IMG/VR virus record: IMGVR_UViG_3300047678_000534 | Location: 1-26,621 of that record | Length of the DNA stretch: 26,621 nucleotides | Strand: one strand, 5' to 3' | From: a virus | Part shown: positions 2,487-26,621 of the stretch, in pieces | Layout: each line of letters opens with the position of its first letter | How positions within the stretch are numbered: position 1 is the stretch's first letter | Program-made: the position numbers and the translations under genes | Notes under the pieces: generated by a model | The model's database searches: none | What the model was told of the DNA's origin: nothing | What the model saw: only the letters and a program-made list of their open reading frames with translations

Positions 2487-2765
2487 ATGAACGCAACGCA
2501 CGCCAGATCTGACGGCAAGGTCCGTCGCCAGGCATCGATCGTTTGGGAGCTGCGGGTCGGCCCCCTTCAGCTCCGATGCCTCGTGGCAGCTCCCGGTTTC
2601 AAGCGGTACCGCGTGGAAGCGAAGGAAGATGGCGCGTGGCGTCGCTTCGCTGACTCCGATGATGCTTGGAGTGTGCTGCGCCTCGTGACCGCCGCCGAAG
2701 CCACCGGCCGCGCCGTTACCGCTTCAGCCCTGCGGGCGACGATGACCGCCCCGGAGAAGAAGTGA
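2487..2765 (+). CDS. Small hypothetical protein
   Basis: This 92-residue basic protein is not recognised. A GAGGAA Shine-Dalgarno lies just before ATG 2487. It appears to hold a short beta region (IVWELRVGPLQLRCLVAAPG, then KRYRVEAKEDGAWRRFADSD) followed by a helical C-terminus. Its stop codon overlaps the GTG start of the Mom-like gene, so the two are likely co-translated. Confidence 0.7.
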   Translation: MNATHARSDGKVRRQASIVWELRVGPLQLRCLVAAPGFKRYRVEAKEDGAWRRFADSDDAWSVLRLVTAAEATGRAVTASALRATMTAPEKK

Positions 2766-3559
2766 ACGCCCCTGCCTGCCAGCGCTGGCGCGACCGCCGC
2801 GGCACCTACCGCCCAGCCGGGGAGCCGATCCGAACCGCTGACTACGAGGTCAGCGAGATCGCGACCGACCGCGAGGCGCGGGCCTTCGTCGAGCGGCATC
2901 ACTACTCGGGGAGCTACCCGGCCGCCCGTGCGCGGTTCGGCCTGCACCGGCGCGGCGAGCTCGTTGGGGTGGCCGTGCTCTCCCATCCGCCCAGCGAAGC
3001 GGCCCTGCTGGCGGCGCTGCCCTTGCCTTGCGATCGGCTCGCAAAGGTCGAGCTGGGTCGGCTGGTGCTGCTCGACGACGTCCCGGCCAACGGCGAGAGC
3101 TGGTTTGCGGCCCGCGCCTTCGAGTTGGCGCGCGCGGCAGGCTTCGAGGCCATCGTCGCTCATTCCGACCCCGAGCCGCGCAGCACGGCCGCCGGCGGGA
3201 TCGTCTTCCCGGGACACCTCGGAACCATCTACCAAGCCACCAACGCCGTTTACTGCGGCCGCACGCCGGCCCGGACCTGGCGCCTGCTGCCCGATGGATC
3301 GGTGCTGAGCGCGCGCGGACTGTCGAAGCTCAGGCTCAAAGAGAAGGGCTGGCGCTACGTCGTGGAGCTGCTGCTCGCGCACGGCGCGCCGGCACCGTCT
3401 GGCGATTGGCGGGAGTGGGTCACTCTCGCCGTCGAGACCGTATCGCGCACGTACAGGCACCGCGGGAATTACAGATACATTTGGGCGCTAGATCGGCACC
3501 TGCGTCGCCACCTGCCTGAGGGGTTGGCCTATCCGAAACACCTATTGGAGGCAGCGTAA
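2762..3559 (+). CDS. Mom-like DNA-modification protein
   Basis: This 265-residue protein looks like the Mom family. Phage Mu Mom is a GNAT-fold enzyme that converts adenine in phage DNA to N6-carbamoylmethyladenine, protecting it from host restriction. Motifs in order are ERHHYSGSYP (about residue 45), ARFGLHRRGELVGVAVLSHP, AKVELGRLVLLDD, NGESWFAARAFELARAAG, EAIVAHSDPE and GTIYQATNAVYCGRT (about 155-170). A further 90 basic residues end the protein, more than in Mu Mom. The GTG at 2762 is chosen for the GTGA overlap with the previous stop and the GGAG upstream; a longer upstream frame overlaps that gene. No Com gene is adjacent, although a zinc-ribbon protein lies four genes downstream. The family call is from motif memory; the modified base is inferred. 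Confidence 0.75.
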   Translation: MNAPACQRWRDRRGTYRPAGEPIRTADYEVSEIATDREARAFVERHHYSGSYPAARARFGLHRRGELVGVAVLSHPPSEAALLAALPLPCDRLAKVELGRLVLLDDVPANGESWFAARAFELARAAGFEAIVAHSDPEPRSTAAGGIVFPGHLGTIYQATNAVYCGRTPARTWRLLPDGSVLSARGLSKLRLKEKGWRYVVELLLAHGAPAPSGDWREWVTLAVETVSRTYRHRGNYRYIWALDRHLRRHLPEGLAYPKHLLEAA

Positions 3560-6290: not shown

Positions 6291-6316
6291 CCGAAACTCG
6301 ACCCCCCGAGTTTCGG
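6291..6316. terminator. Stem-loop after the rightward operon
   Basis: CCGAAACTCG and CGAGTTTCGG form a perfect 10-bp stem with a six-base loop, 27 bases after the stop of the lipoprotein gene. No T tract follows on either strand, so it is terminator-like only. Its right part belongs to an 18-base direct repeat at 6305-6322 that recurs at 6505-6522. Confidence 0.5.
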
Positions 6317-6388
6317 CACACCGAATGGTCGGGGGAAAAAACTTTCTGCACTCCGTTTCCCCTCGGGAGGGCCCGCTCGCGTCCGCCT

Positions 6389-6416
6389 GCAAATCTAGCC
6401 CGTCGCCCAGATTTGC
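6389..6416. repeat. Inverted repeat, 8-bp arms, 12-base spacer
   Basis: GCAAATCT (6389-6396) and AGATTTGC (6409-6416) are perfect inverted arms separated by 12 bases. The arms are AT-rich for this window, as expected of an operator or a hairpin; the function is unknown. Confidence 0.55.
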
Positions 6417-6444
6417 CTCCAAATGACCCGCGTCCACAGGGCGG

Positions 6445-6472
6445 GTGACATTGCCAGAGCGTGAAATGTCAC
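6445..6472. repeat. Inverted repeat, 8-bp arms, 12-base spacer
   Basis: GTGACATT (6445-6452) and AATGTCAC (6465-6472) are perfect inverted arms with the same 12-base spacing as the unrelated pair at 6389-6416. The shared geometry with different sequence is notable. Confidence 0.55.
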
Positions 6473-6493
6473 TTTGCGAGCCCCCCTCCTGGA

Positions 6494-6513
6494 AAACTCG
6501 GACACCCGAGTTT
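6494..6513 (-). terminator. Terminator of the leftward membrane-protein gene
   Basis: Read leftward, the stop codon at 6524-6522 is followed by AAACTCGG, loop GTGT, CCGAGTTT and then TTCC. This 8-bp stem ending in a short T run resembles an intrinsic terminator. Confidence 0.55.
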
Positions 6514-6521
6514 CGGCACAC

Positions 6522-6839
6522 CTAGCGCGGAACGCCAGCTCGCGCGCAGTCGGCAGCCTCGGTCGCTTTTGCCGCCTGATAGCGCGCTTCGTTCTTGGCC
6601 TGCAGCCACGCCGCTGAGACGAAACCGGCCTGAACGCAGGTCTGCATTGGGTCGCCCTGCCGCTTCGCCATCTCGTACTGAGCGACGGCGTCGTCCGCGA
6701 CCTTGTTCGAGATGTCGGCCATCGAGGAGGCGACGTACTTGTTCTCGGCTTCCTTGCCGATCGTGAAGTACGCCGCGACGCCCAAGACACCCAAAACCAA
6801 CCCGAGCACCTGCTGCCGCTTGGATACCGCTTCCGCCAT
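6522..6839 (-). CDS. Small membrane-anchored protein, paralogue of 23569-24153
   Basis: This 105-residue protein has one N-terminal membrane segment (VLGLVLGVLGVAAYFTIG) followed by a soluble domain of about 65 residues. The domain, from NKVADDAVAQYEMAKRQGD through CVQAGFVSAAWLQAK to ADCARAGVP, is over half identical to the C-terminus of the leftward protein at 23569-24153, including both cysteines. Each lies on the minus strand at one edge of the late structural block. ATG 6839 is chosen because TGCTCTGGT lies seven bases upstream, matching TGCTTTGGT at the same distance from ATG 24153. The frame stays open upstream to 7463, but that part has no paralogue match. The family is not recognised. 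Envelope roles such as superinfection exclusion are possible but unproven. Confidence 0.7.
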   Translation of the reverse strand: MAEAVSKRQQVLGLVLGVLGVAAYFTIGKEAENKYVASSMADISNKVADDAVAQYEMAKRQGDPMQTCVQAGFVSAAWLQAKNEARYQAAKATEAADCARAGVPR

Positions 6840-9215: not shown

Positions 9216-11118
9216 ACCGCTCACTCCTTCGGAGTGGGCCGAGCGCAATCGCTACCTGCCACAGGGGGTGACGCCGCTCCCCGGCCTCTACAGCTTCAAG
9301 GTCACGCCTTACCTGCGCGAAATCGTCGATTGCCTCGGCATCGACTCGCCGGTCCGCAAGCTCTCCTTCATGAAGGGCGTGCAGATTTGCGCGACCACGG
9401 GGGTGCTGGAAAACGCCATCGGCTACTACATCGCGCACGTCAAATCGGCGTCGATGATGATGGTCACGGCCGATAGCGACCTGGCCAAGCTCCGCATGGA
9501 GTCGGCTATTACGCCGATGCTCCAGGAGAGCGGGCTGCTGCACCTCATCAAGTCGAACGACGAGGCAAACACCCGTAAGACCGGCAAGACGGACAAGCGT
9601 CTCGACTGCATCGGCGGCGGCTGCCTGATCCCGAACGGCGCGCAGAATCCCAACAAGTTTCGCTCGCTGCCGATCCGCGTGATGCTGCGCGACGAGATCG
9701 ACGGCTGGCCCGACGTCGTCGGCAAGGACGGCGACCCGATGAAGCTCACGGAGGACCGCACGGCGGCCTACGAGAGCGAGCGCAAGATTCTCGACATCTC
9801 TACGCCGCTCATCAAAGGGCAGTCGAAGATCGAGAAGCAGTTTCTGCTGGGAGACCAGCGCTACTACTACGTCAACTGCGTCAAGTGCGGGCACGCGCAG
9901 GACCTGCGCTGGGAGCGCATCTCGAGTGACGGCGTAGTCAGCGGCATTTGGTGGGAAGAGGACGAGAAGACGGGCGAGCTCGTCTCGGGCAGCGTCCGCT
10001 ACCTCTGCGAGAAGTGCCAACACCCGCACACAAACGACGATAAGACGCGGCTTTTGGCAAGCGGGCAATGGCACCCGACGGCCACCCCCTCGAGCCCCGA
10101 TCACCGTAGCTACCACCTCAACGCGCTGTATTCGCCTGTGGGCATGCAGACGTGGGAGGCGCTGGTGCGGAAGTGGAAAGAGGCGTGGGACACCGTCAAC
10201 AAGCGGGTCATCGACCACGAGAAATTCCAAGTCTTCTACAACAACGTCCTCGGCAAGACCTACGAGATACGAGGCGAGAAGCTCCGGCTCGAGACCGTCT
10301 CGAGTCACCGTCGGCTGGGTGTCTACAGGTACGGTCAGGTGCCGAACCGCTGGGCGGCGGAGCACTGTGGCGGGGCGGCGCTGCTGCTCACGTGCTCGGT
10401 CGACGTCCACAAGGATTCGCTGAAGGTTGCGGTCTTCGCCTGGTGCCGAGAGCGACGAGCGCTGCTTGTCGACTACTGGACGCTGCCTGGTGACCCATCG
10501 CAGCGAAACGACCCAGGAACTTGGGGCGAGCTAGCAAAACTCATCGACGAGAAGAGGTACCCCGCCGACGACGGCAAGGTCTACCCGCTCGCCATCACGC
10601 TCGTCGACTCAGGCTACTTGAGCGACCAAGTCTACGAGTTCTGCACGCAATGGGAAACCGGCGTGTATCCGGTCGACGGCCGTGACCACCTAGGCACTTC
10701 GTCAAACAAGTACTTTTCCGCGTTCGTCTCCTCGATGGGCACGCGGGCCTTCGCAGTCGCCGGCGACCTGTACAAGGATCGCTGGGCCGCAGCACTACGG
10801 CTTGTCTGGAACGGCGAAGAGATTCAGCCGCCGGGACACTTCAACGCGCCCGAAGACGCGACCGAGAAGCAGCTGAAGGAGCTCACCGTTGAGGTGAAGC
10901 GCGAGAAGGTCGAGTCAAGCACCGGCAAGCGCGTCGGGCACTACTGGCACCGCGTTGCCGGCGTCGCCAACGAACTCTGGGACTGCCTCATCTACTCGGC
11001 CGCAGCGCTCGACATGCTCTGCCAAGACGTCTGCGCGAACCAACTAGGCCTCGAAGCTGCGGACTGGCAAGCCTTCTATCGAATCTGTGAAGACGGCGAG
11101 TACTGGGGAACGAGCTGA
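9082..11118 (+). CDS. Terminase large subunit, lambda gpA family
   Basis: This 678-residue protein is the ATPase-nuclease motor that cuts concatemeric DNA and pumps it into the prohead. The ATPase half has a divergent P-loop region (KGVQICATTG, about 98-107) and a Walker B, VMLRDEID (D204, E205). A zinc-finger-like insertion has CVKCGH (C266, C269) and CEKC (C309, C312). The C-terminal RNase H-like nuclease shows CSVDV (D441), LVDSG (D509) and LWDCLIY (D634), the acidic triad expected of gpA. Its length is close to lambda gpA (641 aa). ATG 9082 lies inside the small-subunit gene; the next conserved block starts at TPSEWAERNRYLP, so the exact N-terminus is less certain. It overlaps the gpW-like gene by TGATG. 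Confidence 0.93.
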   Translation: MPSAKRSRRASATPLAEQPEGGLEPTEEQATWFAEQIESLTTRLEPLTPSEWAERNRYLPQGVTPLPGLYSFKVTPYLREIVDCLGIDSPVRKLSFMKGVQICATTGVLENAIGYYIAHVKSASMMMVTADSDLAKLRMESAITPMLQESGLLHLIKSNDEANTRKTGKTDKRLDCIGGGCLIPNGAQNPNKFRSLPIRVMLRDEIDGWPDVVGKDGDPMKLTEDRTAAYESERKILDISTPLIKGQSKIEKQFLLGDQRYYYVNCVKCGHAQDLRWERISSDGVVSGIWWEEDEKTGELVSGSVRYLCEKCQHPHTNDDKTRLLASGQWHPTATPSSPDHRSYHLNALYSPVGMQTWEALVRKWKEAWDTVNKRVIDHEKFQVFYNNVLGKTYEIRGEKLRLETVSSHRRLGVYRYGQVPNRWAAEHCGGAALLLTCSVDVHKDSLKVAVFAWCRERRALLVDYWTLPGDPSQRNDPGTWGELAKLIDEKRYPADDGKVYPLAITLVDSGYLSDQVYEFCTQWETGVYPVDGRDHLGTSSNKYFSAFVSSMGTRAFAVAGDLYKDRWAAALRLVWNGEEIQPPGHFNAPEDATEKQLKELTVEVKREKVESSTGKRVGHYWHRVAGVANELWDCLIYSAAALDMLCQDVCANQLGLEAADWQAFYRICEDGEYWGTS

Positions 11119-11384
11119 TGTCTGACCTCGGCATTGACGACCTTCTCGAGTCGCAGGTCGCTCCGCTCAAAGCGAAGCTGGTCGCGATGATCGCCGCCAG
11201 CACAGGGCTCGCGACCGGCGCGATCCAATCGTACGAGCTCGAAACCGGCATGACCCGTCAGAAGGTCACCAAGGTCAACCTCGACGTTCTCGAGGCCGCC
11301 ATCGATAGCCTGATGAATACCCTCACCACGCTCGAAGCGCGCCTGCGCGGCTGCGGCGCGGTTCGCATCATCCCATCCTTCTAG
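11118..11384 (+). CDS. Head-tail joining protein, gpW-like
   Basis: This 88-residue protein fills the gpW slot between large terminase and portal, where lambda gpW helps close the filled head and build the tail interface. The sequence is helical (DDLLESQVAPLKAKLVAMIA, VNLDVLEAAIDSLMNTLTTL), with a central GMTRQKVTKVN and a C-terminal GAVRIIPSF tail. Length and position fit the family better than strict motif identity does. Translation is coupled to the terminase by the TGATG overlap. Confidence 0.6.
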   Translation: MSDLGIDDLLESQVAPLKAKLVAMIAASTGLATGAIQSYELETGMTRQKVTKVNLDVLEAAIDSLMNTLTTLEARLRGCGAVRIIPSF

Positions 11385-11391
11385 GAATGTC

Positions 11392-13026
11392 GTGCCGAAG
11401 AAGCCCGCCGCCAAGCCTGCGCGCAAGGCGCGGAGCAAGCAGAACTCTGAACGCGACGCGATCATCGTTGCGCTCAACGAGCTGCCTTCCGTGCGGGGCA
11501 TCGTCGATCACGGCGAGAAATTCGCCGGCGGGCTCGGCGCGATCGACATTCTTTTCACCGACTACTGGGCGCTCCGCGCTCGGTCGGCTGAGCTCTACCA
11601 GCGCAACCTCTACGCGCGCGGCCTGATCCGTCGGCTGATTTCGAATCAGATCAACACCGGCCTTCACCTCGAGGCCACGCCCGAGGAGAAGATTCTCGGG
11701 GTCGAGGAAGACTCGCTCTCCGACTGGTCCGAGGACGTCGAGAACAGATTCGCTATCTGGGGCAACAGCGCCTACCTCTGCGACCAGGACGAGCGGCGCT
11801 CGTTCGGTGCGCTCCAGGAGGCGGCGCAGACCGAGGCCCTGGTTGCCGGCGACGTGCTGGTGGTGCTGCGCAGCGACCCGCGCACGCGTCTACCTCGCGT
11901 GCAGCTCATTCCGGGCAGCGCGGTTCAGTCGCCGTGGAAGGACGCCCCAGCCGGGGCGACCATCGAGCACGGCGTCGAGCTGGACGCCCAGCGCAGGCAC
12001 GTCGCGTTCCACATCCTGCAGAAGGACGGGACGACGAAGCGTCTGCCCGCCTACGGCGAGAAGTCGGGGCGGCGCTTGGCCTGGCTCCACTACGGCAGCG
12101 ACAACCGCCTGAACGACGTGCGCGGCATGCCGCTGCTGGGGCTCGTGCTCCAGTCGCTGAAAGAGGTAGACCGGTACCGCGACGCATCTTTGCGCAAGGC
12201 CGTCATCAATTCGATGCTGGCCATGTTCGTCACGAAGGGTGCTCAGCTGCCCGGGACGAAGCCTCTGTCGGGCGGCGCCACGCGGCGCGGCACCGAAAAG
12301 ACTACCGGCAATGACGGCAAAGAGCGCAGCTTTCGCGCAGCCGAGAGTATCCCGGGCCTGGTCATCGAGGAGCTCCAGTTCGGCGAGAAGCCTGAGGCTT
12401 TCAAGACCGACCAGACCGTCGAGGCCTTCGGCGAGTTCGAGAAGGCAATCGTACAGGCCATCGCCTGGGCGAACGAAGTTCCCCCCGAGATCCTGACGCT
12501 GTCCTTCGGCAGCAACTACTCGGCGAGCCAGGCGGCCATCAACGAATTCAAGATGTATCTGAACCGCGTACGCACGCGGTTTGGTGAAAGCTTCTGCTCG
12601 CCCATCTACGAAGAGTGGCTGCTAGCGCAGACGCTGGCGGGACGCATTCAGGCCGACGGGTTCATCCAGTCGTTCCGCGCCTACGACCAATTTGAGACCT
12701 ACGGGTCTTGGATTTCCTGCGATTGGTCGGGCGCCATCAAGCCGGCCGTCGACCTTTCCAAGCTGGTTCGCGGCTATCGCGAAATGGTGGAAGCGGGCTT
12801 CATCACCCGTGACCGCGCTACGCGCGAGCTCACCGGCACGAAGTTCAGCAAGAACGCCAAGAAGCTGGCACGCGAAGCCGAGCTGGTCGTGGCTTTCACT
12901 CGCCCGCTGCTCGAGCTCGAAGCGGAGCTCGCCAAGGCACCCCAAACGCCCACCGTGATGCGCACGCGGAAGGCCATCAGCAAGAGCCTCAAAGGCGCAC
13001 GAAAAGGACTTTCCGCATGTGGCTGA
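11392..13026 (+). CDS. Portal protein, lambda gpB family
   Basis: This 544-residue protein should form the dodecameric ring at the capsid vertex through which DNA enters and leaves. Family-typical parts are the N-terminal YQRNLYARGLIRRLISNQIN, LVAGDVLVVLRSDP, an LIPGSAVQSP core (about 175), GMPLLGLVLQSLKEVDRYRD (about 245-265, the clip or stem approach), then PPEILTLSFGSNYSASQAAI and the stretch starting GSWISCDWSGAIKPAVDL. GTG 11392 follows AGGAA. It has about the same length as lambda gpB (533 aa). The 3' end overlaps the protease gene by ten bases. Confidence 0.92.
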   Translation: MPKKPAAKPARKARSKQNSERDAIIVALNELPSVRGIVDHGEKFAGGLGAIDILFTDYWALRARSAELYQRNLYARGLIRRLISNQINTGLHLEATPEEKILGVEEDSLSDWSEDVENRFAIWGNSAYLCDQDERRSFGALQEAAQTEALVAGDVLVVLRSDPRTRLPRVQLIPGSAVQSPWKDAPAGATIEHGVELDAQRRHVAFHILQKDGTTKRLPAYGEKSGRRLAWLHYGSDNRLNDVRGMPLLGLVLQSLKEVDRYRDASLRKAVINSMLAMFVTKGAQLPGTKPLSGGATRRGTEKTTGNDGKERSFRAAESIPGLVIEELQFGEKPEAFKTDQTVEAFGEFEKAIVQAIAWANEVPPEILTLSFGSNYSASQAAINEFKMYLNRVRTRFGESFCSPIYEEWLLAQTLAGRIQADGFIQSFRAYDQFETYGSWISCDWSGAIKPAVDLSKLVRGYREMVEAGFITRDRATRELTGTKFSKNAKKLAREAELVVAFTRPLLELEAELAKAPQTPTVMRTRKAISKSLKGARKGLSACG

Positions 13027-19416: not shown

Positions 19417-20046
19417 ATGGTGAAACGGAGAAAGAGGAGGGCGGCTACACGCCCCTCCTCTTCGCCATGCAAACGAGGCCACGCTGGAGAGCGGTACGTC
19501 GTCTCCGGGGAGTGCGTGGAATGCGTAATCCTGCGCGCGCAGCAGCACTACGGGCGAAACAGCGACGCCATCAAAGAAGGCGCCCGGTCCCGATACCGAT
19601 CTGACCCAGAAACGAAGAGGGCTGCTGTTCGAAGCCGAGCGCTCGCAAACCCCGAGGCTGTTCGCGCTGAGAAGCGCCGCGAGTACCAGCACCACAAGGC
19701 CGCCTACGTTGCGCGGTCGGTCGCTTGGTCCAGAGCCAACAGGGAACGCTTTCGCGAGATGCATCTCGCTTGGCGGAAGGGCAACCCGGAGAAGCTCTCT
19801 CACTGGGCGGCGCTACACCGAGCGGCACGCCTCATTCGACGTCCGCCGTGGCTCACCGCTGAGCAGCTGTTCGAGATCCGTGGCTTCTACGCGGAGGCGC
19901 GTCGACTGACGACGACGACCGGTATTCGACACGAAGTCGATCACATCGTGCCTCTGCTCGGAGAGACGGTGTCTGGCCTTCACGTCCCGTGGAATCTGCA
20001 GGTTCTGACTGACGTCGAGAACCGCGCCAAGTCGAACAAGTTCTAG
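19417..20046 (+). CDS. HNH (homing-type) endonuclease
   Basis: This 209-residue protein has a zinc-binding start, CKRGH then CVEC (about residues 18-40), typical of phage-borne HNH endonucleases. A long basic helical region of repeated Arg/Tyr follows (RKAVRSR-like, YQHHKAAYVARSVAWSRANR). The C-terminal HNH core reads HEVDHIVPLLGE, GLHVPWNLQVLTDVENRAKS. Such enzymes cut intron- or gene-lacking DNA and spread their own gene. It interrupts the sheath-tube pair, which are otherwise adjacent in Mu-like tails, so it is a probable insertion. No intron-like sequence is visible and the neighbouring genes look intact. Confidence 0.85.
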   Translation: MVKRRKRRAATRPSSSPCKRGHAGERYVVSGECVECVILRAQQHYGRNSDAIKEGARSRYRSDPETKRAAVRSRALANPEAVRAEKRREYQHHKAAYVARSVAWSRANRERFREMHLAWRKGNPEKLSHWAALHRAARLIRRPPWLTAEQLFEIRGFYAEARRLTTTTGIRHEVDHIVPLLGETVSGLHVPWNLQVLTDVENRAKSNKF

Positions 20047-23445: not shown

Positions 23446-23506
23446 GCGCCATAGCGTCATGAGCCATCACTCGTTTGGTTGACCCGGAAAAACTCACAAG
23501 TCGAGA

Positions 23507-23538
23507 CGACGACTGCTAGGGTCCTTGCGACGTCGTCG
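23507..23538. repeat. Inverted repeat between convergent genes
   Basis: CGACGAC (23507-23513) and GTCGTCG (23532-23538) are perfect arms in the 123-base gap between the tape measure and the convergent leftward gene. Together with GCCGC/GCGGC near 23556-23567 it may serve as a bidirectional terminator, though no T tract is present. Confidence 0.4.
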
Positions 23539-23568
23539 GTGTTGCCATCCCCCCGGCCGCTGGCGGCG

Positions 23569-24153
23569 TCACTGCTGTGGCATCCCCGCCTTAGCGCAGT
23601 CGGCCTTCTGGATGCCTTTCCAGGATGTGTATTCGTGCTCGTCCTGCGCCTGCAGGTAAGCAGCAGCGACCATGCCGGCCTGAACGCAGATCTGAATCTT
23701 GTCGCCTTGCCGCGCCGCTATCCGGTAGCGGGCAACAGCGTCGCTGGCCACCTTTTGGTTGATGTTGGCCATCATAGAATCGCGGCGTTCTTCGAGACTG
23801 GGGCGTCGCGCCTGCGGTGCCGCTATTGGCGGAGCAAACTCGCAAACGTACGCGGCTGGTCCCGCAGACTCGCGGCTGAGAAACCAAATCCCGCCCCAGA
23901 CAGCGAGCCCCATCAACCAAGCGAGCCAGCCGTGACGGTTGACGGACTTGGCCTTGTTCGGGTGCTCCTTTCGCCAGACGTAGAACAGGATCGAGCTGCC
24001 GAGCACGACGAACCAGGAGCCGATGTAGGGGACGAGAGCGGCGCCGTACAGGCCAACCTTCCAGCCCCGCGATAGCACGTCGTCTGGGTCGGGGCCCTCT
24101 TCGTAGCTGTCATCGTCGATCTCGGCCTCGGCAACAGCGGCACGCTTTCCCAT
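23569..24153 (-). CDS. Membrane protein, paralogue of 6522-6839
   Basis: This 194-residue protein has an acidic N-terminus (EAEIDDDSYEEGPDPDD), two membrane segments (GLYGAALVPYIGSWFVVLGS and GWLAWLMGLAVWGGIWFLS) and a soluble C-terminal domain. That domain, from NQKVASDAVARYRIAARQGD through CVQAGMVAAAYLQAQ to ADCAKAGMP, is over half identical to the leftward protein at 6522-6839, both cysteines included. ATG 24153 is preferred over ATG 24195 because TGCTTTGGT lies seven bases upstream, matching the paralogue. It is transcribed toward the tape measure. Function is unknown; an envelope protein acting on the host surface or on superinfection is possible. Confidence 0.75.
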   Translation of the reverse strand: MGKRAAVAEAEIDDDSYEEGPDPDDVLSRGWKVGLYGAALVPYIGSWFVVLGSSILFYVWRKEHPNKAKSVNRHGWLAWLMGLAVWGGIWFLSRESAGPAAYVCEFAPPIAAPQARRPSLEERRDSMMANINQKVASDAVARYRIAARQGDKIQICVQAGMVAAAYLQAQDEHEYTSWKGIQKADCAKAGMPQQ

Positions 24154-24204
24154 GCCGCGCACCAAAGCATGCACTCGCGACGCGCGCAGCAGCATGAAGG
24201 GGTG

Positions 24205-24230
24205 GCTCGGCTAGTACTTTTCAACCGAGC
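24205..24230. repeat. Hairpin before the repeat array
   Basis: GCTCGG (24205-24210) and CCGAGC (24225-24230) are inverted arms with a 14-base loop, just outside the degenerate first repeat. It mirrors the dyads found in each spacer of the array. Confidence 0.5.
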
Positions 24231-24628
24231 GCGGCGCTCTCGCGCAGCCGTTCGGACGCCCCAAGGGTGGGAAGTTCTACTTCACCACCAACGGTGTCAC
24301 CGCCGCCGCGCTCTCGCGTAGCCGTTCGGACATCTTTCGACTAGTAGAAAGATGGCGGACGACGGCGTCACCGCCGCCGCGCTCTCGCGTAGCCGTTCGG
24401 ACGTCTCCAATTGGAGACAAGGGAAGCTCACCCCTCCGGTCACCGCCGCCGCGCTCTCGCGTAGCCGTTCGGACCTCGATAGCGTCACCAACTGCCGCGA
24501 GCTGCGGCGGTCACCGCCGCCGCGCTCTCGCGTAGCCGTTCGGACTCCTAAGGCTGAGCGATCAAAGGTCGCTAAGCCTGTCGTTCCAAAGAGTCACCGC
24601 CGCCGCGCTCTCGCGTAGCCGTTCGGAC
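24222..24628. CRISPR. CRISPR-like repeat array with dyad-bearing spacers
   Basis: A 36-bp repeat, GTCACCGCCGCC...AGCCGTTCGGAC, occurs identically at 24296-24331, 24367-24402, 24439-24474, 24510-24545 and 24593-24628. A degraded copy lies at 24222-24257 (3' 24 bases with one change, 5' part lost). Spacers are 38, 35, 36, 35 and 47 bp and unrelated to each other. The terminal degraded copy suggests the old end lies left and any leader right, giving leftward transcripts; this is inference. The repeat ends in GTC/GAC and holds CGCG-CTCT-CGCG. Every spacer also contains an inverted repeat: 24266-24289, 24331-24354, 24403-24418, 24492-24510 and 24551-24579. No cas gene is visible, so CRISPR function is unproven. 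Confidence 0.6.
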
Positions 24629-24864
24629 CAGTCTCGTAGGGGTCCAGCGCTTCCGAGTACTTGCAGGGCGGTTTGCGAGAGGTGCTGCGCGTCAGCGGTT
24701 CCAGCATGATTTGACGCGCGCCAGGGCAGCACCAGCGCGAAACGCGTCACTTCCGGGGTGCTGCAGATTCTTCTTCAATCCTTTACGCGTGTTACGCGTT
24801 CCCGGTGAAAATGGAGTAGACGACGCGTCCAAGACGCGTAAGGTGACGCGTAGGAGCAACGCGT
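24629..24864. other. Gene-free region between array and RHH gene
   Basis: These 236 bases contain no supported gene. The first part holds alternating arms: GGTGCTGC at 24681-24688, GCAGCACC at 24726-24733 and GGTGCTGC again at 24757-24764. An inner pair, GCGCGTCA/TGACGCGC, lies at about 24687-24719. Mutually exclusive hairpins are therefore possible. The second part holds seven ACGCGT sites. Confidence 0.55.
24742..24864. promoter_or_regulatory. Cluster of seven ACGCGT sites (operator)
   Basis: ACGCGT starts at 24742, 24785, 24794, 24823, 24834, 24846 and 24859. The last four are spaced 11, 12 and 13 bp, about one helical turn. The final site lies between the Shine-Dalgarno AGGAG and ATG 24865. 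Tandem short sites before an RHH gene fit cooperative autoregulation, as known for RHH repressors; binding is inferred. Confidence 0.65.
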
Positions 24865-25095
24865 ATGACTGAGAACTACACGGCTCGGTTCAATTTCGTC
24901 CTTTTGCCCGACGAAAGAGCCATGTTGCAGGCGCTGGCGCGTGAGCAAGGCCTCAAGGAGTCGGACATCCTGCGGCAGATGATTCGCCGAGACTACGCGG
25001 CCGCGTTCGGCAAGAAGAAGCCGGGCGAACCGGAGCCAAAGTACAACAGCCAGGCAGCGCGGGCGGCGAAGGCCAAGCGCGGCGCCAAGAAGTAG
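24865..25095 (+). CDS. Ribbon-helix-helix DNA-binding protein
   Basis: This 76-residue protein has an RHH core: strand TARFNFVLLPDERAMLQALA, then REQGLKESDILRQMIRRDYA. The C-terminus is basic and Lys/Ala-rich (ARAAKAKRGAKK). TAGGAG lies eight bases before ATG 24865, separated from it by an ACGCGT site, so the protein probably represses its own gene. It heads the small-gene operon on the right. RHH proteins also bind partition centromeres, but no ParA-type gene is visible. Confidence 0.78.
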   Translation: MTENYTARFNFVLLPDERAMLQALAREQGLKESDILRQMIRRDYAAAFGKKKPGEPEPKYNSQAARAAKAKRGAKK

Positions 25096-25105
25096 CAAAC
25101 GAAAC

Positions 25106-25137
25106 GGCCTCGAAGCTGCGTCAACAGCCCCGAGGCC
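25106..25137. terminator. Stem-loop after the RHH gene
   Basis: GGCCTC (25106-25111) and GAGGCC (25132-25137) enclose an inner GCTG/CAGC stem in the 71-base gap. There is no T tract, so it may be a weak terminator or an mRNA-processing hairpin. Confidence 0.45.
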
Positions 25138-25166
25138 ACGACCATCAATCGGGAGATCGAAAAGTC

Positions 25167-25475
25167 ATGACCAAGCTATCAGCACGCTCGAAACACCGCA
25201 AGCTAGCCGCAGGCAAGCCGACCAAGGCCGGCACGACGCCAGCAGATAGGCGAGTCTTGGCGCAGGCCGCCGCGGAAGACGAAAGCCGGCCCACTGCGCT
25301 AAGCGTCGGCGCCGCGCGAAAGAAGCTGCGCCTCGCCTGCGAGCAGATTGGGTTCGCGTTGGCAGGCGCGCGCCTGCAGGAGGACTTCGATACGGTCGAC
25401 AGCCTGACGCCCGTCCTAGCGAGCGTGTGGTCGGCTCGGATGGAATTGGGCGATGTTCCGGAGGTGACGCCGTGA
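25167..25475 (+). CDS. Hypothetical protein
   Basis: This 102-residue protein is not recognised. GGGAG precedes ATG 25167. The first 25 residues are very basic (KLSARSKHRKLAAGKPTKAG). The rest is helical (ARKKLRLACEQIGFALAGAR, then LQEDFDTVDSLTPVLASVWS). GGAGGTGA near its end serves the next gene, whose GTG overlaps its stop. Confidence 0.7.
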   Translation: MTKLSARSKHRKLAAGKPTKAGTTPADRRVLAQAAAEDESRPTALSVGAARKKLRLACEQIGFALAGARLQEDFDTVDSLTPVLASVWSARMELGDVPEVTP

Positions 25476-25807
25476 ACGAGCCGAGGCCTTGCTTCAAGCG
25501 CAGTGGCACGCTGGAGGGTGATAACCTCACGGTCGATCACCCCGAGCACGCGAATTGCGCGGCGGTCTTCGGGCACGCACTCGCCCCGTGGGAGAACGGC
25601 AGCCCGCTGGCTTTCGCAGGCGAAGCATTGCAGCAACTAGCAGCGGACTTGTTCGCGTTGCAGTGGGCCGCGTTTCCTGCCGACGGCGCGGGCATGAATT
25701 CAGCCCTCGTTCACAGAGTGCTCGCTGGCATTTGTCAACGCGCCGAAGCGGCAGTTGTCGTGCTTACGCGACTCGAAGAAGCTGAGCGAGCGGAGGCGCA
25801 GCCGTGA
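25472..25807 (+). CDS. Hypothetical protein
   Basis: This 111-residue protein is not recognised. GTG 25472 is chosen for the strong GGAGGTGA upstream and the GTGA overlap; the open frame extends to 25427. The N-terminal 35 residues contain PCFKRSGTLEGDNLTVDHPE. The remainder is helical and Ala-rich: AGEALQQLAADLFALQWAAF and ICQRAEAAVVVLTRLEEAER. Confidence 0.7.
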   Translation: MNEPRPCFKRSGTLEGDNLTVDHPEHANCAAVFGHALAPWENGSPLAFAGEALQQLAADLFALQWAAFPADGAGMNSALVHRVLAGICQRAEAAVVVLTRLEEAERAEAQP

Positions 25808-26049
25808 GCACCAGGCGACCGCGCGCGCTGAAGCCAAACCCGCGCGTTGTTCATCAGAACGAAGCGGAGCAGATGGTGAAGGACCTCAACCAAGCCATCG
25901 ACAACGTGCTCACCCTGGCAGAGTTGGCGGACGAACACCCCTACACCGAAATCGCGCTCGAGACGCTGGTGTCGCTGCGCAACATGCGCGACGTGATTCG
26001 CTTGGAGATGGGCTCGGCGTTGAGAGAGTCGCGAGAGGCTGCCCAATGA
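25804..26049 (+). CDS. Small hypothetical protein
   Basis: This 81-residue, mostly helical protein is not recognised. GTG 25804 overlaps the preceding stop, with CGGAGG upstream. It has a basic start (RRPRALKPNPRVVHQ) then NEAEQMVKDLNQAIDNVLTL and EIALETLVSLRNMRDVIRLE. The gene ends by ATGA overlap with the next one. Confidence 0.68.
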   Translation: MSTRRPRALKPNPRVVHQNEAEQMVKDLNQAIDNVLTLAELADEHPYTEIALETLVSLRNMRDVIRLEMGSALRESREAAQ

Positions 26050-26294
26050 ACCCCACCGAGGCCCGTGACGAGGCTCTGGAATGGATCAGTGACGTGCGTA
26101 CGGAACTAGCTCGTCTTCACTGGTACGCGCACCGGTTTCTACATGGCACGGCCGGGGTCACGAAGGAGGGAGCGCTCCTCGAGTTTGCCGATGCCACGAG
26201 TGAAATCGGTATGTCTCTCAACTTTCTGGCCGAACGCGTGCGAGAGCTCGGAGACGCGGCGGCGGCCCCACGCGAAGCCGAGGCGGCCAGATGA
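26046..26294 (+). CDS. Small hypothetical protein
   Basis: This 82-residue protein is not recognised. It starts by ATGA overlap and is helical throughout: EARDEALEWISDVRTELARL, then FADATSEIGMSLNFLAERVR. Together with its neighbours it forms a string of very small coupled genes, like the left-hand operon. Confidence 0.68.
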   Translation: MNPTEARDEALEWISDVRTELARLHWYAHRFLHGTAGVTKEGALLEFADATSEIGMSLNFLAERVRELGDAAAAPREAEAAR

Positions 26295-26581
26295 GCGGCT
26301 GGGCCTTGCGCATCGAGCACCAGCCCGACGGCTTGCGGCTGCGCTTCCCCGAGCCGCTGGCCACGCTGGACATGACGAGCGAGACGGCCGCCCACCTGGC
26401 GAGCCTTCTCGCCGTGGAGGCGCGGCATCGGATGCGAGGCGTCGTCGCGGGCTTGAGTGAGCCCCCAACGAGGCCAAACTCCGAAATCATTCGCGATTCC
26501 GAGCTTTGCTGCACGGCGCAGCAAAGTCGCCCGCTCTGCTGCGACTGCGAGCCGTGCTTGAATGGAGACCACGATGGGTAG
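26291..26581 (+). CDS. Small hypothetical protein, Cys-rich end
   Basis: This 96-residue protein is not recognised. It starts by ATGA overlap. The N-terminal half looks alpha/beta (WALRIEHQPDGLRLRFPEPL, then TAAHLASLLAVEARHRMRG). The last 30 residues are rich in cysteine (CC, CCDCEPC), possibly a metal-binding tail. Confidence 0.65.
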   Translation: MSGWALRIEHQPDGLRLRFPEPLATLDMTSETAAHLASLLAVEARHRMRGVVAGLSEPPTRPNSEIIRDSELCCTAQQSRPLCCDCEPCLNGDHDG

Positions 26582-26621
26582 CAGGCTGAAGAAGCTGCGA
26601 GCCGTGGCGCCGCGGCCAGGT
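26574..26621 (+). CDS. Partial gene at the right edge
   Basis: ATG 26574 follows GGAG and overlaps the previous gene by eight bases. Only sixteen codons are present (MGSRLKKLRAVAPRPG), a basic start cut by the window end. No function can be suggested. Confidence 0.5.
   Translation, partial: MGSRLKKLRAVAPRPG

What the first reader, a model, noticed from the sequence alone, without database searches (positions are those of the whole stretch)
24222..24628. CRISPR-geometry array in which every spacer carries an inverted repeat
Five identical 36-bp repeats and one degraded end copy alternate with unrelated spacers of 38, 35, 36, 35 and 47 bp. This looks like CRISPR, but all five spacers hold dyads. 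They are a 10-bp stem with one bulge (24266-24289), an 8-bp stem around ACTAGT (24331-24354), a perfect 16-bp palindrome GTCTCCAATTGGAGAC (24403-24418), a 7-bp GC stem with one wobble pair (24492-24510) and an 11-bp stem with one mismatch (24551-24579). Structure is kept while sequence changes, which random DNA spacers should not do. Possible readings are spacers taken from hairpin RNAs or terminators (as reverse-transcriptase-linked CRISPR systems might do), a phage array aimed at palindromic sites of rivals, or a new non-coding RNA or DNA-site system with constant and variable modules. No cas gene is in the window.
Basis: partly seen in the sequence, partly recalled or inferred. Interest (0 to 1): 0.9.

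Follow-up and report, generated by a model that had tools for sequence, protein, structure and literature searches.

The report
Phage CRISPR-like array with hairpin spacers
An uncultivated tailed phage carries a small CRISPR-type array with no cas genes, and at least three of its five spacers fold back on themselves far more than ordinary CRISPR spacers do; it is probably a phage-borne CRISPR array that borrows host machinery, and the hairpins are unexplained.

Summary
The array is real. Five identical 36-bp repeats (24296-24628) and one degraded copy (24227-24257) alternate with unrelated spacers of 38, 35, 36, 35 and 47 bp. It lies in non-coding DNA of an IMG/VR tailed-phage fragment, between a (-)-strand membrane-protein gene and a ribbon-helix-helix-like gene.

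The dyad claim holds as an excess, not as "every spacer". Summed folding z is -11.1 (random phage DNA P <= 1e-4). Against 1,148 spacers from 41 cas1-linked arrays, five random spacers match the summed dyad score with P = 2e-4. Three spacers (2, 3, 5) have a dyad class held by 0.87% of real spacers (binomial 6.5e-6). Spacer 1 is moderate; spacer 4 is at chance.

Best reading: a cas-less phage-borne CRISPR array, probably read on the (-) strand, using host Cas proteins against other mobile elements. No cas gene, protospacer, host with this repeat or related array was found in any collection that could be searched, so Cas dependence and targets are inferred.

The most novel open reading is a decoy array: an RNA anti-CRISPR in array form whose self-folded guides occupy host Cas proteins. 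TIGR arrays, a repetitive protein gene and diverged tandem repeats were rejected.

The parts
24227..24257 (-). Degraded terminal repeat. Read on the (-) strand it is the last repeat, damaged at its 3' end, as at the trailer end of CRISPR arrays
   Evidence: 27/36 matches over 24222-24257, mismatches concentrated in the first 8 (+) positions
24258..24295 (.). Spacer 1, 38 bp; bulged 10-bp stem at 24266-24289
   Evidence: MFE -15.2, shuffle P = 0.021; coding-like on + (PKGGKFYFTTNG, shuffle P = 0.010)
24296..24331 (-). Repeat copy 1, 36 bp
24332..24366 (.). Spacer 2, 35 bp; dyad CATCTTTCGACTAGTAGAAAGATG at 24331-24354 (11 of 12 pairs)
   Evidence: dyad 8.5, no shuffle of 1000 reaches it
24367..24402 (-). 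Repeat copy 2, 36 bp
24403..24438 (.). Spacer 3, 36 bp; perfect 16-bp palindrome GTCTCCAATTGGAGAC at 24403-24418
   Evidence: dyad P = 0.010, MFE P = 0.003
24439..24474 (-). Repeat copy 3, 36 bp
24475..24509 (.). Spacer 4, 35 bp; 7-bp stem at 24492-24510, not beyond chance
   Evidence: MFE P = 0.378, dyad P = 0.542
24510..24545 (-). Repeat copy 4, 36 bp
24546..24592 (.). Spacer 5, 47 bp; long imperfect stem at 24551-24579
   Evidence: MFE P = 0.008, dyad P = 0.001; only 4 of 1149 real spacers are 45 bp or longer
24593..24628 (-). Repeat copy 5, 36 bp; intact end, leader side in the (-) reading
24629..24864 (.). Non-coding flank on the intact side; would be the leader if the array is read on (-). 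Also holds seven ACGCGT sites (24742-24864)
   Evidence: 40% A+T in 24629-24828, against 35% on the other side
23569..24195 (-). Membrane-protein-like gene directly after the array in the (-) reading; C-terminal domain shared with 6522-6839
   Evidence: no Pfam, PHROG or PADLOC match

Best explanation
A phage-borne CRISPR array without cas genes. SHOWN: five identical 36-bp, partly palindromic repeats and one end-degraded copy alternate with unrelated near-constant-length spacers in non-coding DNA of a tailed-phage contig; three or four of the five spacers fold significantly. INFERRED: the array is transcribed on the (-) strand from the 24629-24864 side; host Cas proteins process it into crRNAs; those crRNAs guide host Cas effectors against other mobile elements competing for the same cell, as proposed for virus-borne mini-CRISPR arrays (PMC6858448). 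On this reading the hairpins are either a chance run or a bias in what was captured; they are not explained.
For: Exact repeat identity and unrelated spacers. Spacer lengths close to those of real arrays with 36-37 bp repeats (mean 36.4). One terminal repeat damaged at its 3' end in the (-) reading. The repeat is a partial dyad with complementary GTC/GAC ends (11 of 16 mirror pairs, P = 0.014). Spacers 1 and 5 score as coding DNA (shuffle P = 0.010 and 0.034), as expected of captured gene fragments. Unit lengths 74/71/72/71/83 do not keep a reading frame, unlike the in-frame 63-bp repeats of related phages. Cas-less arrays in viruses are established (PMC6858448; PMC11656645).
Against: No host with this repeat: 0 exact hits in IMG/VR, and one isolated 22-mer core hit in 84,980 species genomes with no array around it. 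No protospacer in the collections searched. No recognisable leader or sigma-70 promoter. One 47-bp spacer. The hairpin excess is not expected of CRISPR spacers.
Confidence: 0.55

Rival explanations
1. Decoy array (RNA anti-CRISPR in array form). The phage expresses CRISPR-like repeats to occupy host Cas proteins. The guides are kept self-folded so that loaded complexes cannot act, on the phage itself or anything else.
For: Hairpin excess in the guide segments. Phages are known to express solitary repeats that form aberrant Cas subcomplexes, and the published search for them discarded clustered repeats (PMC10651486). Hairpins that cover the spacer silence engineered guide RNAs (PMC5339017). No protospacers found.
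Against: Spacer 4 is unstructured. In the (-) reading, spacers 2, 3 and 5 leave 13-20 bases free of the main hairpin next to the repeat, where many Cas effectors seed. Published RNA anti-CRISPRs are single repeats. The cognate Cas system is unknown.
Confidence: 0.13
2. A non-CRISPR tandem element: each unit is a constant imperfect hairpin (36 nt) plus a variable hairpin, acting as a structured RNA or as a row of protein-binding DNA sites (decoy, origin or partition site).
For: The repeat folds end to end with symmetric internal loops and two G-U pairs on the (+) strand. Hairpin z-scores are stronger on (+) than on (-) (-11.1 against -7.8). Wobble pairs in spacers 4 and 5 also favour (+). The neighbour is a ribbon-helix-helix-like gene with clustered ACGCGT sites.
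Against: The variable parts show no homology. No Rfam family matches convincingly. The damaged repeat and near-constant spacer length are typical of CRISPR. Spacers 1 and 5 look coding. The ACGCGT sites lie outside the array.
Confidence: 0.18
3. The array is not the phage's own: an assembly chimera, or a recent cut of host or plasmid DNA joined to the phage at about 23.5 kb. It would then be an ordinary host array.
For: In relatives the tape-measure gene is followed directly by baseplate genes (L007), but here by a (-)-strand gene, the array and small genes.
Against: The gene next to the array has a relative at 6522-6839 in the same contig (57% identity over 68 aa). G+C is uniform. No read data were available.
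Confidence: 0.1
4. TIGR (Tas) array, dual-repeat or stem-loop type.
For: TIGR arrays occur in phages, and one class has variable palindromes (PMC12045711).
Against: TIGR dual repeats are 8-12 nt with 9-nt spacers; stem-loop TIGR arrays lack a long constant repeat. No Tas or Nop protein was found among the proteins scanned.
Confidence: 0.02
5. A repetitive protein gene: the open frame 24352-24618 (+) reads through several units.
For: The frame is open for 88 codons; the junction peptide VSNWRQGKLTPP resembles a helix-turn-helix by eye.
Against: Unit lengths break the frame. No Pfam match at E <= 10 and no PDB match. The region lacks the phage's coding signal.
Confidence: 0.02

Closest known systems
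Virus-borne mini-CRISPR arrays (portogloboviruses SPV1/SPV2; PMC6858448)
   Same: Cas-less repeat-spacer array inside a viral genome
   Different: Those have 1-2 spacers, repeats like the host's, host-like leaders and identified viral protospacers. Here there are 5 spacers, no identified host repeat or protospacer, and a hairpin excess
RNA anti-CRISPRs / solitary repeat units (Racr; PMC10651486)
   Same: Phage-encoded CRISPR-like repeat without cas genes
   Different: Those are single repeats and the search discarded clusters; here five repeats alternate with unrelated spacers, and inhibition is untested
Ordinary host CRISPR arrays (41 cas1-linked arrays used as control)
   Same: Repeat length, spacer length, identical repeats
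   Different: No cas1 nearby; summed spacer dyads reached by about 2 in 10,000 random draws of five real spacers
TIGR arrays (PMC12045711)
   Same: Tandem guide-like array found in phages
   Different: 8-12 nt dual repeats with 9-nt spacers and a Tas protein; none of these here

Membership tests
CRISPR array | Several near-identical direct repeats of about 23-50 bp | tested here: met
   Five identical 36-bp copies
CRISPR array | Unrelated spacers of near-constant length | tested here: met
   38/35/36/35/47 bp, no pairwise homology; the 47-bp spacer is an outlier
CRISPR array | Degenerate terminal repeat at one end | tested here: met
   24227-24257, damaged mainly at one side
CRISPR array | A+T-rich leader with promoter at the other end | tested here: inconclusive
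   Flank only slightly richer in A+T (40% against 35%); no sigma-70-like promoter
CRISPR array | cas genes in cis, or the same repeat in a cas-bearing host | tested here: inconclusive
   No cas family among the window proteins scanned; repeat absent from IMG/VR and, as a 22-mer core, present once by itself in GTDB genomes. The phage is a fragment and metagenomes could not be searched, so a host or a distant cas gene may exist
CRISPR array | Spacers match mobile elements | tested here: inconclusive
   No match in INPHARED or PLSDB; two relaxed patterns empty in IMG/VR. Many real spacers also lack matches, so this is weak
Virus-borne mini-CRISPR array | Cas-less array inside a viral genome | tested here: met
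   Phage genes on the contig; junction not checked with reads
Virus-borne mini-CRISPR array | Repeat like the host's and spacers against related viruses | tested here: inconclusive
   Neither host repeat nor target found in the collections searched
RNA anti-CRISPR (Racr) | Repeat matches a host CRISPR repeat and its expression inhibits the cognate Cas system | not testable with these tools
   Host unknown; needs expression assays
TIGR array | 8-12 nt dual repeats, about 9-nt spacers, associated Tas (Nop) protein | tested here: not met
   Anatomy differs; no Nop or Tas match among the proteins scanned

The most novel reading that the evidence does not exclude
A phage-encoded decoy CRISPR array: several CRISPR-like repeats whose guides are kept self-folded, so that the host's Cas proteins are loaded with inactive guides; an array form of RNA anti-CRISPR in which selection preserves spacer structure rather than sequence.
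Probability: 0.12. Interest if true: 0.82.

Novelty: new variant of a known kind. Interest (0 to 1): 0.52.

Why it matters
Cas-less CRISPR pieces in phages are used either to attack rival viruses or to jam host immunity. A five-spacer phage array with strongly folded spacers is a test case between the two: if the folding is selected, arrays as well as single repeats can act as RNA anti-CRISPRs, a class that the published search excluded by design. If it is a chance run, it is one more phage-borne array with an unknown host.

Tried and rejected
Exact repeat in IMG/VR: 0 hits. 22-mer core in 84,980 genomes: one isolated site in Prauserella, no array. 17-mer core in IMG/VR: 16 single sites, none repeated. 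DNA similarity of the array to phages and plasmids: only short chance matches (the 25%-covered Streptomyces globosus match lies in a peptide-synthetase gene and was not examined). Relatives through the (-) gene: none. Relatives through capsid and terminase: L006-L012 and L031, none with an array; 63-bp repeats seen in L108 and L006 are in-frame, apparently coding repeats. Rfam: nothing at gathering thresholds, only weak chance-level matches at relaxed ones. Protein reading of the array: no family. An anti-repeat (tracrRNA-like) elsewhere in the window: nothing above shuffled repeats. The resemblance of the repeat ends to a type V-B array found in a control genome (L095) was noted but is near chance and was dropped. 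Helix-turn-helix look of spacer 3: no support.

Full report
What is there. The window is an IMG/VR virus record of 26,621 bases. It carries terminase, portal, protease, capsid, sheath and tape-measure genes, related at about 45-60% to myophage-type genomes of Shewanella, Aeromonas, Acinetobacter and Vibrio phages and to the uncultivated contig L007. The finding lies in a 669-bp non-coding gap (24196-24864) between a (-)-strand gene and a small ribbon-helix-helix-like gene. Five identical 36-bp repeats and one degraded copy alternate with spacers of 38, 35, 36, 35 and 47 bp. In L007 and in named relatives the tape-measure gene is followed directly by baseplate genes (L007); here it is followed by this island. 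A gene beside the array has a relative 17 kb away on the same contig (57% over 68 aa), which argues against a chimera.

Is the dyad content more than chance? Per spacer, dinucleotide-shuffle tests give P = 0.021, 0.071, 0.003, 0.378 and 0.008 for folding energy, and 0.59, <0.001, 0.010, 0.54 and 0.001 for an ungapped dyad score. The summed z-score on the (+) strand (-11.1) was reached by no more than 1 in 10,000 sets of five windows drawn from phage DNA. A stricter control used 1,148 spacers from 41 arrays found near cas1 genes in 40 regions of genomes of one phylum, the Actinomycetota to which the single core-hit genome belongs. Their mean z is -0.1, and 0.87% have a dyad score of 8 or more. 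Five random real spacers reach this array's dyad sum with P = 0.0002; among 986 consecutive five-spacer windows none does. Three of five spacers with a dyad of 8 or more has binomial P = 6.5e-6. So the excess is real, carried by spacers 2, 3 and 5, with a moderate contribution from 1 and none from 4. It was found by a reader scanning sequence for oddities, so these P values are not corrected for that search.

Is it CRISPR? Anatomy says yes: identical repeats, unrelated spacers, near-constant lengths, and one terminal repeat damaged mainly at the end that is 3' in the (-) reading. The repeat is itself an imperfect dyad with complementary GTC/GAC ends. Spacers 1 and 5, and perhaps 4, have the codon composition of protein-coding DNA, which suits captured gene fragments. 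What is missing is the functional half: no cas gene among the window proteins scanned, no genome with this repeat, no protospacer and no clear leader.

Strand. The damaged terminal repeat and the (-)-strand gene directly after the array favour (-) transcription. The G-U pairs (two in the repeat, and one each in the stems of spacers 4 and 5) and the stronger z-scores favour a (+) RNA. This conflict is unresolved; it is the main reason why a non-CRISPR structured element keeps some weight.

How it most likely works. Host Cas proteins would process the transcript and use the guides against other mobile elements in the same cell, as described for archaeal virus mini-arrays (PMC6858448; review PMC11656645). 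Hairpins within guides would then be a chance run or a capture bias. The alternative is a decoy: phages are known to express single CRISPR repeats that trap Cas proteins (PMC10651486), and that paper's search explicitly set clustered repeats aside. Engineered hairpins over the guide silence it (PMC5339017). An array with folded guides would combine these, but nothing here tests it, and three of the guides keep 13-20 bases clear of the main hairpin next to the repeat in the (-) reading.

Rejected readings. TIGR arrays differ in unit anatomy (PMC12045711). The open frame through the array does not survive the unit lengths and has no protein family. The spacers are not a diverged tandem repeat. 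No Rfam family is present.

Verdict. A genuine cas-less CRISPR-type array in a phage contig with a statistically unusual hairpin content in its spacers; a new variant of a known kind, with function inferred from anatomy.

Noticed in passing
24742-24864: Seven ACGCGT hexamers within 123 bp, directly upstream of the ribbon-helix-helix-like ORF 24865-25095 (weak NikA-like match); a likely operator or partition-site cluster. The whole 26.6-kb window holds only 14.
   Followed up: partly
6522-6839 and 23569-24195: Two (-)-strand membrane-protein-like genes share a C-terminal domain (57% over 68 aa); no Pfam, PHROG or PADLOC match for the longer one; candidate morons inside late operons.
   Followed up: partly
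6291-6522: Cluster of four hairpins in one intergenic region, two of them sharing AAACTCG...CGAGTTTCGGCACACC 200 bp apart; variable loop, constant tail. No match to the shared form in IMG/VR.
   Followed up: partly
23446-26621: Island of a (-) gene, the array and small (+) genes where relatives have baseplate genes directly after the tape measure.
   Followed up: partly
32-877: DUF3560 protein on the (-) strand, related to phage proteins some of which are annotated as primase.
   Followed up: no
2666-3559: Mom-like DNA modification protein.
   Followed up: no
19417-20046: Endonuclease VII-like gene inserted between the sheath gene and the next tail gene.
   Followed up: no
L095:4092-8675 and 11054-11450: In a control genome: a 1527-aa protein with a C2c1 (Cas12b) RuvC domain beside a 36-bp repeat array; it seems long for that family (from memory).
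   Followed up: no
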